A program made the position numbers and the translations under genes. 64,000 bases of DNA from Prunus persica (taxonomy: Eukaryota; Streptophyta; Magnoliopsida; Rosales; Rosaceae): positions 13,887,142-13,951,141 of the forward strand of contig NC_034010.1 in the NCBI RefSeq assembly GCF_000346465.2, given 5' to 3'. Below are positions 26,015 to 62,513 of the stretch, piece after piece. The notes below the pieces were generated by a model, which was not told the DNA's origin, did no database searches, and saw only the letters and a program-made list of their open reading frames with translations. The number at the start of each line of letters is the position of its first letter. Position 1 is the first letter of the stretch.

Positions 26015-29000
26015 TCACCTACCTGACAAAGTCCATGTTAACTCCCCGTTGGGACCTATTGAGTTCAAATTTTCTTGAACATCACCTGCATGCATCTCCT
26101 GTGGATACAGAAAAGGTCTGATAGGCATCTTTAGGCATTCAACATCTCCTCCGAGCATTTCTATGACTTTGTTCATGTTAGGCCGATCACTTGGCTTCAT
26201 TTGAATGCACCACAATGCAGTTATAACCATCTTTTTTATGATTTTATTTTCCTCCTCATTAAAATCTCCCATCTCCAAGTCATTTCCCTTGTTATATTGG
26301 TCGTACGCCCATGACGGGAAGTAGGTTTGGCTTGAACGCTCCACCATTGAATTGAAATTCTTCCTTCTGCTTGCCATTTCCATGAGCAACATTCCAAAAC
26401 TGTAGACATCAGCTTTGTACGAAACACCTCCAATATTTTTGTAGAACAACTCAGGAGCAATATAGCCCATTGTTCCCCTTGCTGCCGTCAAAGAGACAAT
26501 GCTATCATCTACGGAATATAATTTCGCAAGCCCGAAGTCAGAAATCTTTGGGTTAAAGTTCTCATCAAGAAGAATATTATGAGGCTTGATATCAAAATGC
26601 AGAATTTGCATTTCACAACCTTGATGCAGATATTCAATCCCTCGAGCCACTCCGAGAGAAATCTCGTACATTTTCTTGCAACTTAAGGGCATGCTTTTTT
26701 CTTTGGAATAAATATATTTATCAAGAGAGCTATTAGGCATGAAGTCAAATACTAGAGCACGATTTGATCCCTCAACACAATAACCAATAAGTTGCACCAC
26801 ATTAGCATGATGAATCCTTCCAATGGTAGCTACCTCACTGGTGAAGTCTTGTCCATTACCTTTGGGCTTGCCCAGAACTTTAATTGCTACAAAACTGCCG
26901 CTGCGTAACTTTCCTTTAAATACAGAGCCATAGCCGCCTTCACCCAGCTTGTCCTTAAATTTATTAGTCATCTTCTTAATTTCTGAGTAAGAGTACCTTA
27001 TTGGCAAGAAGTTGCTATCACTTTGTAGAAAATCTTCTATGACGCTATACATTGACAAATGTCGTCTTCGCCATGTATAGATTACGAACACGATCATACA
27101 TGGAACCCCAAAAATGAGTCTTGCTGCAAAAAATGAACCTGTACAAGAGATGTATCACCAAAAGAACAATGAGAAAAGAACATTTAGATCAACTAATGGT
27201 TTTTCTTCTTGTTTGCGAGACACATTATCTTCCTTCTGTTTGGAATCTATATATGTATTATTTGATTTTGATGTCATTCAAGGGATTACACAAGCCCTTA
27301 CCCAAGCAAATGAGTGGCCCCCATCTACGCCCTGCAAGAAACATAGAAAAAGTGCGAACAAAATCAAAAACTTGAGAGGGAACAAAATCGAAGAACTGTT
27401 TATATTGCATGAATTTCAAGATCTTACGGATGGATTGGAAGGCAAAGCATGGATGTCTAGCTGCAAGAAATACAACAACAAATGTAAGCAAAAACGAAGA
27501 CTTGGACTAGGTTTGAATTGACATATTTTCTGTCACAAGTTCATTTCTCTCCACTCACTACAATTTTCGTGTAATTGACACACACACACAAAAAGAAAAA
27601 AAAAAAAAAGGGGGGGTTGTAAAGAAAAATTAAGAGAGAGTCCTTACCAACGTACACGTCTCCACGAGAAAAGAAAACTACAGTGATAGAAGTAAGGGAA
27701 AAAAAAAAAAACAACATTAGTATATGTAGTCATTACAATTTGAAACCAAGTTTTGATACATACCTCTATTCCCGCCACAAACTAGCCCCTTGACACATTG
27801 ATTTAAAACTAACTAGCCCTTGGCACATTAGTTTTCTTTTTAATTTTTAATTTTAATTTATTTTAGAATTAAAAAAGATAAATTGGGCAATTATCTTCCA
27901 TAAATATGGATTTACTAAATATGTTTATTTCTTAGTATTTTCTTTAATTAAGTGCATTTTTTGGTATTTTAAATGTTTTACCATTCTCTACTAAGAAAAA
28001 TTTATAACACATGTTTGGTGGAATCGTGATCTCTTGTAAGTACTCAAAAGTTGTAATCAGAGAGAGAGAGAGAGAGAGAGAGATTACTAGCTTACCTTTA
28101 GTAACCTCCCATCGAAATCGAATTAAACCTACAGTGACAAAAAAGAAGATAACATTAGCACACGAAGTAATTAAAGTTTAAAGTCAATTACATTTTTCAC
28201 TCTCGTGGTTTGAGATTTGTAACAGTTTGACCCATGTCGTGTAAAAACTAACAAAAATAACCTTAAAGTTATCAATTGGTACCCCATTTGCCCATTCGTC
28301 TGTCTAACTATGAAGCTAGCTACGTTTTTCTTGACATGGCATCTGGTGGGCCTGTCTGTTACTTACAAGTCACACGGACGCTAGATTGATACAACGTAGG
28401 TCATTTTCAATTCTATATCCTGAAGATTATGGCTTTCTTTAAACACAATTTGGGGACCCAAACGTATGGGCTCAAAGTCCGACCGGGCGAAAGTCTGACG
28501 GGGGTCGGGGTGGACCCAAACGTACGGGGCTCTTCTTCTGCTCCAAATGATTTGCACAAACTTGGGGAACAAACAAGTCACCAAAAGGGTACTTGTGTAG
28601 CACCAGCAAACCCTCTTTGATGCCCAAGTCTAATTCAAAATTTCTAGTCGATAGAACTATGAATTCCTAATTTTATAGGAATAAGGGAACGAGTGGAATT
28701 TTAAGACAATTAGAGAAACAAAAGGAAGAAGTTAAGAAAATGCTTTGAGTTTTGCTTGTCTATTTCATTCATCAAATGAGGTTTATATACAAGTTCATCT
28801 TCCTAAACTAGCAAACTAAAAATAGCAAGTACATTTTTGGACTAGAGTTTAAAGGGTAACATTCTCTCTTGCCAGATAGTCTCACACTATCAGATATATT
28901 GCCAATGTGTGAATTTGAATCATTTATCATATGTATTCTTTGCTTGAATGTTTAGTCGAGATCCAAAGATTGAAAACACAAGTATTTTTCTGACAATTAC

Positions 29001-29839
29001 AAGTCTGGCAAGAGAACATTACCGGAGTTTGAGTGCCCCTAACTTCCTTCTATGTATTCACAAAGTAAAAGTGCAACATTTACAAGCCATGGCCAAGAAT
29101 TCACGTACCTGGGATGGTGCGTGGAAAACATTTAGAATTAGAAGTCCATTGGCCTGGGCACTTTTCGTAAGGCCAATATACTCCAAGCTCGAAGCCATAC
29201 ATGAGCGCACTGTGTATGGATTTATAAGATGGCATGTAGTCCTTAGAGTAGTTCAAGAGCGCCGAAGCGTACCCTACACTGCAACCCCTGTTCAAATCCC
29301 CCACTACCATAGCCCCAACCTTCACATAACTATACGTCTTTTGTTGGACCAAAGAAGTAGCACTTGTGTTCAAGCATGGAGCCGTTTCCACGTACAGAGA
29401 AGAATTCACTGGATTTGAACACATGATGTAAAATATAGGCGTTGAAAGCGGTGAACTCCTTGTATTGACTATAGAATATGGAAATCTTAACCCGGGAAGA
29501 AAATTTCGAGGCATGGAGGAGCAATTGTTGTTCTGAAGGCCAGGGTCTACGAGTCGGATTGTTTGGTTATGGTAGTTGATTGCCCGGACATAGTATCTTC
29601 CAGAAGAAGGTACGTCTACAAGTGTATTGTCGTTCTCACAAGACAGAGTATACTTTACATTGCCGCAGTGCTTTGGATCATGTTTTAGTCGGAAAGGATA
29701 GCTTATGTTGTGGATATTGCCGCAGGAAGAGGTACACTTGGTGCTTTCATCCTTGGCGTTACAAGTTTCCCTGGCTAAGCCAACAACAAGAAAGGCTACA
29801 ATTAAAACCCACCTAGACAAGGCCAAGGACCTGCTTCCC

Positions 29840-29841
<2 letters not shown>
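26015..29841 (-). CDS. LRK10L/Lr10-type receptor-like kinase, minus class, pair 1 (634 aa, 4 exons)
   Basis: Exons by my reading: 29841-29109, 28128-28096 (33 bp), 27677-27648 (30 bp) and 27123-26015. All introns are GT-AG, all junctions are phase 1, and the sum is 1905 nt = 634 aa plus stop. Signal peptide about residues 1-29 (WVLIVAFLVVGLA). The galacturonan-binding WAK-type ectodomain starts at CTSSCGNIHNISYPFRL. The transmembrane segment is about 266-283 (VPCMIVFVIYTW), followed by RRRH. Kinase: glycine loop GEGGYG at 326, VAIK lysine 347, catalytic Asp 443 in HFDIKPHN, DFG at 461 and GTMGYIAPE. Phe replaces the Arg of HRD, so it is a non-RD kinase, a type common among immune receptors. 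Expected site is the plasma membrane, kinase inside. The partner gene starts 333 bp away on the other strand. Intron 1 (28129-29108) holds repeat-like DNA. No defect seen. Confidence 0.92.
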
Positions 29842-29883
<42 letters not shown>

Positions 29884-61898: not shown

Positions 61899-61920
61899 TA
61901 TCAGATACAGTTACAACCTT

Positions 61921-62017
61921 AGAAATGCTGCAAATGCTCATCTCTTCCTGTTGCATATTTTTACGCTTAGCACATCAGAAATGCTGCAAATGCTCATCTC
62001 TTCCTGTTGCATATTGT
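61921..62017 (+). repeat. 56-bp period direct duplication over the start of the receptor relic
   Basis: AGAAATGCTGCAAATGCTCA with about 20 following bases occurs at 61921 and 61977. The first copy lacks the downstream reading frame, so the start codon region of the receptor relic is doubled. Confidence 0.9.
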
Positions 62018-62513
62018 TAATGGCTTTCTCCAAAGTTCTTGGAGAAACACAAAATACCTGCAAAAAATTAAAGTGTGGGGATAAAGGCCCGCCTATCCAT
62101 TTCCTTTTCAGCCTCAACGATAGGCAACCAGATCACTGTGGCTATCGTGGGTTTGCTGTGTCTTGCAATGAGAGACATCAGATGGTTCTTGAGCTGCCAA
62201 TTCCAGTCAAACTCTCCGTCAAAAGCATAGATTATGAGCATCAACAAATCTCTCTGTACGACCCAGATAATTGCCTGCTAGTAAAAGTTTCAGAAATCCT
62301 CAACATGTCAATCTTTCCTTTCCACTTTTCAAAAGAGTCCATGAACATTACCTTATTCAATTGTTCTTCTGTTCTAAATGGCCCCTGCCACAGCAACCAT
62401 GGCAATCAAATCTATGCCGTTTATGATGACTACGAAATTGATAACCTCTAGTATTGCACAAAGATACATAATATTTTATCAGTTCCGATTTTTTATTTAG
62501 ACAGATCTCCTAG
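61981..62513 (+). pseudogene. LRK10L-type ectodomain (plus class), pair 3; stop codon and cut by a gypsy element
   Basis: Starts MLQMLISSCCILLMAFSKVL (signal peptide), then TCKKLKCGDKGPPIHFLF, LSCNE-type CNERHQMVLELPIPVKLSV, KSIDYEHQQISLYDPDNCLL and NITLFNCSS. The frame stops at TAG (62449-62451), where paralogues encode the segment before SCTKMY. CTKIHNILSVP still follows in frame. At 62514 a retroelement LTR replaces the remainder, so the cysteine-rich end, membrane span and kinase are absent from this window. It is closest in sequence to the plus-class gene at 41011 and shows the frame that gene probably had. The kinase exons may lie beyond the retroelement, past 64000. Confidence 0.88.

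What the first reader, a model, noticed from the sequence alone, without database searches (positions are those of the whole stretch)
26015..62513. Divergent receptor-kinase pair repeated three times, with two structural classes kept apart by strand
Every minus-strand copy (26015-29841, 37991-40354, relic 44411-45578) belongs to one class, with 33- and 30-bp micro-exons where readable. Every plus-strand copy (30174-32227, 41011-43370, relic 61981-62513) belongs to the other, with one 27-bp micro-exon. Starts face each other at 332 and 656 bp. This suggests a two-gene module duplicated as a unit and possibly co-expressed, perhaps acting as paired receptors like some head-to-head immune receptor pairs. 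The pairing in function is inference.
Basis: partly seen in the sequence, partly recalled or inferred. Interest (0 to 1): 0.75.

Follow-up and report, generated by a model that had tools for sequence, protein, structure and literature searches.

The report
Paired immune-type receptor kinases in peach
Peach chromosome 2 carries a long row of paired cell-surface receptor genes of two old kinds that start back to back on opposite strands, which suggests that the two receptors are switched on together and perhaps work together in defence.

Summary
The window is peach chromosome 2. Minus-strand (class A) and plus-strand (class B) copies are two classes of LRK10L-2 ("rust resistance kinase Lr10-like") receptor kinases with cysteine-rich ectodomains and non-RD (HFD) kinases. 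The window's pairs belong to an array over 450 kb in which all 24 A/B pieces listed obey A-minus/B-plus. Divergent A|B neighbours recur at nine other places on chromosomes 2 and 6. Kinase and ectodomain trees separate A from B; the split is older than the rosid/asterid divergence, and A and B are neighbours in some other eudicots.

"Duplicated as a unit" is partly right. Units u1, u2, u4 and u5 share the A-B intergenic region, and u6 shares it with u8, but another block copied B with the next A. Against obligate pairing: 16 of 37 peach A pieces have no B on their 5' side, one peach pair lies on one strand, and fused gene models elsewhere show same-strand A-B and B-B neighbours. B2 has a frameshift near its signal peptide.

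Lrk/Tak receptor-kinase pairs are known in cereals; this is a likely dicot counterpart (orthology unsettled). Co-expression and joint function remain inference.

The parts
26015..27138 (-). A1 kinase exon (transmembrane segment plus non-RD kinase, HFD)
27302..27331 (-). A1 30-bp micro-exon
   Evidence: its residues are in the deposited proteins P0241 and P0242
27428..27460 (-). A1 second 33-bp micro-exon
   Evidence: its residues are in P0241 and P0242
27648..27677 (-). A1 candidate extra 30-bp micro-exon (splice borders only; not in the two deposited proteins read)
28096..28128 (-). A1 first 33-bp micro-exon
29109..29841 (-). A1 exon 1: signal peptide and GUB_WAK_bind ectodomain
   Evidence: Pfam PF13947 E 3.7e-20
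29842..30173 (.). A1|B1 intergenic region, 332 bp, homologous to units u1, u2, u4; three TTGAC[CT] (W-box) motifs
30174..30855 (+). B1 exon 1: signal peptide and cysteine-rich ectodomain (no Pfam hit of its own)
30997..31023 (+). B1 27-bp micro-exon
31122..32227 (+). B1 kinase exon (non-RD, HFD)
33667..33989 (+). class B kinase relic, no partner, not in the finding
37991..39117 (-). A2 kinase exon
39228..39257 (-). A2 30-bp micro-exon
39388..39420 (-). A2 33-bp micro-exon
39610..40354 (-). A2 exon 1: signal peptide and GUB_WAK_bind ectodomain
40355..41010 (.). A2|B2 intergenic region, 656 bp; 40616-40927 recurs in the intergenic DNA of units u8 and u9 and in copies at 36559-37226
41011..41682 (+). 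B2 exon 1, one-base frameshift between signal peptide and body; body frame open from 40890
42174..42200 (+). B2 27-bp micro-exon
42259..43370 (+). B2 kinase exon
44411..45578 (-). A3 relic (kinase part, broken frame; coordinates of the finding, DNA match to other A genes reaches 45746)
45747..49912 (+). copia-like LTR element between A3 and B3, beginning where the A3 match ends
61981..62513 (+). B3 relic (ectodomain part, one stop)

Best explanation
Shown: this is a segment of an array of two old LRK10L-2 receptor-kinase classes, A and B, laid out as divergent A|B units whose 5' edges are under 1 kb apart in 12 of 20 divergent pairs. Tandem duplication without inversion keeps every A on one strand and every B on the other. 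Duplications copied the A|B unit with its intergenic region, or the neighbouring B-to-next-A block, so partners can be re-assorted; units then decay by frameshift, deletion and transposon insertion. Inferred (my odds about 0.35): both proteins are cell-surface immune-type receptors (fast-changing ectodomain, conserved non-RD kinase) driven from one short shared promoter, and they act in the same recognition event, perhaps as a hetero-receptor, like the Lrk/Tak pairs of cereals and, by layout, head-to-head NLR pairs. The confidence below is for the layout and its history.
For: Own-genome maps (table): 12 units, 24 of 24 listed pieces obey the strand rule; 20 of 24 listed class B pieces in the genome have class A as nearest listed family member on the 5' side in divergent orientation. 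Kinase tree: B 100/96, A with the solo array 100/100. Ectodomain tree: B against A 100/100. Mirror-tree r = 0.88, 16 of 40,320. Shared intergenic DNA. Wider kinase tree: A and B clades each hold rosids and asterids. Consecutive A/B locus tags in 5 of 11 genomes. For close pairs, ectodomain dN/dS is 0.56-1.19 and kinase dN/dS 0.12-0.35 (ratios). HFD loop in 20 of 21 kinases scanned. W-box excess over shuffles in 3 of 4 intergenics tested.
Against: A exists without B: 16 of 37 listed A pieces. C2:5.47 Mb is a same-strand B-A pair. Of 23 long fused gene models from other plants, 4 join A and B, which implies one strand (Camellia, Vaccinium, Cajanus, Solanum commersonii), and 4 join B and B (two Turnera, Rhododendron, Escallonia), so neither divergence nor A-B neighbourhood is universal. 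Within the array A and B distances do not correlate (r = 0.19). Three divergent pairs (u12, 9.34/9.38 and the TE-split u7) are 16-35 kb apart. B2 is frameshifted. The A2|B2 intergenic has no W-box excess (1 site; 1122 of 2000 shuffles as high). No expression or interaction data were available.
Confidence: 0.72

Rival explanations
1. Ordinary tandem array: an ancestral divergent neighbour pair is copied passively by unequal crossing-over. The two receptors act independently and the divergent layout has no function.
For: Duplication blocks ignore the pair boundary (window 41005-45376 matches 14059744-14064098 at 90% over 4487 bp, from B to the next A). A thrives alone in the C2:14.57-14.85 Mb array. 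Many units are decayed. B-B fused models exist in other plants.
Against: By my grouping of the kinase tree, 5 of the 6 lineages of pairs are divergent, at nine places outside the array. In peach only two listed B pieces, both small relics, have no A trace next to them. A/B adjacency is seen in several plant families.
Confidence: 0.45
2. Paired sensor and helper receptors, like head-to-head NLR pairs: B (in peach nearly always beside A) senses, A signals, and linkage keeps matched alleles together.
For: In peach B nearly always has A as neighbour while A often lacks B. A1, A2, B1 and B2 kinases show all six motifs scanned. Ectodomain dN/dS is high in both classes.
Against: No extra domain or dead kinase marks one partner as decoy or helper. 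Partner re-assortment inside the array argues against strictly matched pairs. B-B neighbours occur in other plants.
Confidence: 0.28
3. The pattern is an assembly artefact of a repeat-rich region.
For: The region is rich in near-copies and transposons; B2's frameshift could be a base error.
Against: Copies differ by kinase dS of 0.07-0.9, the same divergent layout is found at distant places on two chromosomes, and consecutive A/B tags occur in independent genomes.
Confidence: 0.04

Closest known systems
Lrk/Tak receptor-like kinase pairs of wheat and barley (paired occurrence stated in PMC4246468, passage seen, which cites Hu & Wise 2008 and Feuillet et al. 2001; neither original was read)
   Same: Two related kinase-receptor classes of the LRK10 family occurring in pairs.
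   Different: Orthology of A and B to Lrk and Tak was not established (of four Oryza kinase segments one joins A, three form their own group), and the cereal orientation was not seen here. Peach shows a divergent unit repeated 12 times plus solo A expansions.
LRK10L-2 receptor-like kinases (rust resistance kinase Lr10-like)
   Same: Signal peptide, cysteine-rich GUB_WAK_bind-type ectodomain, transmembrane segment, non-RD HFD kinase, tandem clusters.
   Different: Nothing seen in the single proteins; the two-class paired layout is the added feature.
Head-to-head NLR immune receptor pairs (RPS4/RRS1, divergent and likely co-regulated through a shared short promoter region; passage in PMC13360266)
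   Same: Divergent neighbours, short intergenic region, immune-type receptors.
   Different: Membrane receptor kinases, not NLRs; no integrated decoy domain found; joint function unproven.
Peach LRK10 cluster reported as a structural-variation hotspot on chromosome 2 (PMC7784018, passage seen)
   Same: LRK10-type cluster on peach chromosome 2.
   Different: Given at Chr2 15.42-15.51 Mb in that paper's coordinates; which of the clusters mapped here it is was not tested. The passage seen does not mention divergent pairs.

Membership tests
LRK10L-2 receptor-like kinase | GUB_WAK_bind-type cysteine-rich ectodomain | tested here: met
   PF13947 in A1, A2, B2 and the B3 relic. B1 has no hit even at E 1, but several of its close homologues carry PF13947 and the A and B profiles align over the first cysteine-rich stretch.
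LRK10L-2 receptor-like kinase | Protein kinase domain of the LRK10L-2 type, non-RD | tested here: met
   PF00069/PF07714 in A1, A2, B1, B2 and the A3 relic; HFD loop in 20 of 21 kinases scanned, the pattern being missed in one; most named best hits are rust resistance kinase Lr10-like or LRK10L 2.x.
Lrk/Tak paired receptor kinases | Two distinct classes occurring as neighbours | tested here: met
Lrk/Tak paired receptor kinases | Class A and class B orthologous to Lrk and Tak | tested here: inconclusive
   No wheat or barley Lrk or Tak sequence at hand; of 4 Oryza kinase segments one joins A (99/96) and three form a separate group.
Head-to-head immune receptor pair | Divergent neighbours with short intergenic region | tested here: met
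   12 of 20 divergent pairs have feature edges under 1 kb apart (tblastn edges, not transcription starts).
Head-to-head immune receptor pair | Both members required for one response | not testable with these tools
   Needs genetics or transient assays.
Head-to-head immune receptor pair | Integrated decoy or extra domain in one member | tested here: not met
   Pfam finds only GUB_WAK_bind and kinase in the window exons scanned.
Bidirectional promoter gene pair | Co-regulated transcription from the shared region | not testable with these tools
   No RNA-seq here. W-box excess in u1, u4, u5 but not u6 is only suggestive.

The most novel reading that the evidence does not exclude
A and B are the two halves of an ancient plant hetero-receptor. 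The LRK10L-2 family split into two partner kinds before rosids and asterids diverged, and B genes have since tended to stay next to an A, in peach mostly as a divergent unit with one promoter. The array then makes new receptor combinations by unequal crossing-over that re-pairs B with different A partners.
Probability: 0.22. Interest if true: 0.82.

Novelty: new member of a known kind. Interest (0 to 1): 0.5.

Why it matters
LRK10L-2 receptors are a large, fast-changing and mostly unassigned group linked to disease resistance. A layout in which two classes appear to have stayed neighbours since early in eudicot history gives a direct, cheap hypothesis: test the partners together rather than one at a time. 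It also gives a set of short immune-type intergenic regions for dual-reporter tests, and an array in which partner re-assortment can be followed.

Tried and rejected
Rejected: classes mixing by strand; a three-fold repeat as the whole story (12 units); every duplication copying the A|B pair (one search shows a B-to-next-A block; one search has B u6/u9/u10 at dS 0.065-0.089 while the A genes beside them are at 0.82-0.88); micro-exon sizes as marks of the whole classes (the 27-bp exon was found in 8 of 14 class B introns examined, one of these weak; the 33- and 30-bp exons in 4 of 12 class A introns).

Left out of the counts, whose feature list I put together by hand: weaker family members on C1, C3, C5, C8, C72 and at C2:3.59, 16.07, 22.80 and 29.476 Mb, treated as other subfamilies. 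Kinase searches scored 110 of 1,663 and 1,689 candidates, so counts are lower bounds.
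Full report
What the window is. A protein search found a Prunus brigantina fragment 98% identical to the A2 kinase over 78% of the query. The window's own genome is held as G000, with the window at C2:13887142-13951141. Contig C2 is 30,405,870 bases, the contig length listed for Prunus persica proteins tagged PRUPE_2G, and PRUPE_2G092800 and PRUPE_2G093700 are 100% identical to kinase exons of this contig. The window is therefore peach chromosome 2.

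The genes. A1 (29841-26015), A2 (40354-37991) and B1 (30174-32227) give spliced frames ending in a single stop. Pfam gives GUB_WAK_bind plus a kinase for A1, A2 and B2, GUB_WAK_bind for the B3 relic, and a kinase only for B1. Of 21 kinases scanned, 20 carry HFD instead of HRD in the catalytic loop, i.e. non-RD, and one escaped the pattern; the alpha-C pattern was missed in 6 of 21, none of them A1, A2, B1 or B2. Most named best hits are "rust resistance kinase Lr10-like" or LRK10L 2.x proteins. P0241, a Prunus protein on a contig of the peach chromosome's length, is A1 with a second 33-bp micro-exon and a retained intron; the almond protein P0242 uses 33, 33 and 30 bp plus an insertion of its own. 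B2 is not intact as read: its signal peptide and body are in different frames, while two sibling copies are open there.

The array. tblastn of A and B exons on the own genome and on fetched stretches shows 12 units over C2:13.756-14.206 Mb. I listed 11 class A and 13 class B pieces there, relics included; all 11 A are minus and all 13 B are plus. The window holds units u5, u6 and u7 plus a lone B kinase relic at 33667-33989. Unit u2 has B with only a remnant of the A start.

Elsewhere in the genome. Divergent A|B neighbours also occur at C2:5.61 (relics), 9.34/9.38 (35 kb apart), 15.91, 16.05 and 29.48 Mb, and at C6:11.19, 11.20, 11.53 and 30.04 Mb: nine places, some with relics. Three (9.34, 29.48, 11.53) are mirrored, B minus and A plus. 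Of 24 class B pieces listed, 20 have A as the nearest listed 5' family member in divergent orientation; the other four are the same-strand pair at 5.47 Mb, u2, the 33667 relic and a relic at C6:11.51 Mb. Of 37 class A pieces, 20 are in divergent pairs, one is in the same-strand pair and 16 have no B on their 5' side; 13 of these 16 are the plus-strand array at C2:14.57-14.85 Mb. In peach, A often lives without B; B rarely without A.

Trees. Kinase tree of 48 peach rows: B is one side of a branch at 100/96; A with the solo array is at 100/100. The inner order is similar: C6:30.0 branches first in both, and the C2:29.5, C6:11 and C2:9-15.9-16.0 lineages keep together apart from the array; C2:5.47 sits differently (with the array in A, with the other loci in B). 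Ectodomain tree of 41 rows: B against A at 100/100, though several long branches make inner positions unsure. Distances (dN) of A partners and B partners correlate over 15 pairs (r = 0.56, 0 of 10,000 permutations as high) and over eight loci with one array member (r = 0.88, 16 of 40,320), but not inside the array (r = 0.19, 11,250 of 40,320).

How the array grew. Units u1, u2, u4 and u5 share the A-B intergenic region (u1/u2/u4 88-94%, against u5 68-74%, over aligned positions), and u6 matches u8 in pieces across the A ectodomain, intergenic and B start: here pair and intergenic DNA moved together. But window 41005-45376, from the B2 start to the A3 relic, matches 14059744-14064098 at 90% over 4,487 bp, a B-to-next-A block. 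That fits B u6/u9/u10 at dS 0.065-0.089 while the A genes beside them are at 0.82-0.88. Strand separation follows from direct duplication without inversion. A 0.3-kb block in the A2|B2 intergenic (40616-40927) recurs in u8, in u9 and twice between pairs 1 and 2, with only short weaker matches elsewhere; it may account for much of the longer 656-bp gap.

Age and other species. In a kinase tree with other plants, the A clade (99/97) and the B clade (99/98) each contain Camellia, Vaccinium, Cajanus, Solanum, Castanea, Rhamnella, Rosa and Fragaria members; one Oryza segment joins A (99/96) and three form their own group. Of 57 locus tags typed, 11 genomes show both classes; 5 of 11 have consecutive A/B tags (Prunus speciosa, Rosa sericea, Fragaria x ananassa, Rhamnella rubrinervis, Castanea dentata) and two more are two numbers apart. 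That tags run in chromosome order is assumed, and strand is not visible; the listings were cut at 120 rows, so a miss is not an absence. Of 23 proteins over 720 residues, 4 join an A and a B kinase (Camellia, Vaccinium, Cajanus, Solanum commersonii), implying same-strand neighbours if the models reflect adjacency; 4 join B with B and others A with A or members of other subfamilies. Adjacency of A and B thus looks old, but neither it nor the divergent orientation is universal.

Selection and promoter. Within class, ectodomain dN/dS is 0.56-1.19 for A units u1/u4/u5 and 0.54-0.72 for B; comparisons of A with u6 give 0.36-0.40. Kinase dN/dS for the close pairs is 0.12-0.35 (ratios of the values). 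W-box motifs (a motif for WRKY factors, recalled) exceed dinucleotide shuffles in u5 (3; 6 of 2000), u1 (3; 24 of 2000) and u4 (5; 3 of 2000), but not in u6 (1; 1122 of 2000); u1, u4 and u5 are related, so these are not independent. Without shuffles, u2 has 2, C6:11.53 has 1, C2:29.5 has 0 and C6:30.0 has 2.

Known background. PMC4246468 (passages) states that Lrk and Tak receptor-like kinase genes occur in pairs in barley and wheat. PMC8463890 (start of abstract in the listing) and PMC4295470 (passages) link non-RD kinases with innate immunity. PMC12382012 (passages) puts LRK10L among the Arabidopsis RLK subfamilies with the largest dispensable share. PMC7784018 (passage) reports an LRK10 cluster as a structural-variation hotspot on peach chromosome 2.

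Judgement. The layout and its history are shown; co-regulation is plausible; joint receptor function is inference. The finding is a well-supported new member of a known kind (paired LRK10-type receptor kinases), with an unusually clear divergent, repeated form.

Noticed in passing
33667-33989 (+): Class B kinase relic, 93-94% identical to B kinases, 1.4 kb downstream of B1, not in the finding.
   Followed up: yes
45747-49912: Copia-like LTR element (LTRs 93% identical, RVT_2 and Pol_BBD domains) between A3 and B3, beginning where the A3 match ends; related LTR-like pieces lie at 34430-34934.
   Followed up: partly
5533-9107 (-): Pieces with tnp2 transposase, Transpos_assoc, DUF4216 and DUF4218 domains, read from recall as a CACTA-type element.
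   Followed up: partly
14826-15884 (-): Retroelement integrase fragment (rve, gag_pre-integrs), probably copia-type.
   Followed up: no
27302-28128 (-): A1 has a row of small micro-exons (33, 30?, 33, 30 bp), each a multiple of three, just outside the membrane; deposited proteins differ there. Possible regulated splicing of the juxtamembrane stretch.
   Followed up: partly
59216-59685: Tandem repeat, about 95 bp x 5 copies.
   Followed up: no
3500-4225: Tandem repeat, about 241 bp x 3 copies.
   Followed up: no
61920-62020: Short tandem duplication of the signal-peptide start at the head of the B3 relic.
   Followed up: no
G000 C2:14.57-14.85 Mb (L035-L042, L046, L048): Young plus-strand array of class A genes without B (pairwise kinase dS 0.04-0.20 among seven compared), 0.4 Mb from the paired array: a natural control for the paired form.
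   Followed up: partly
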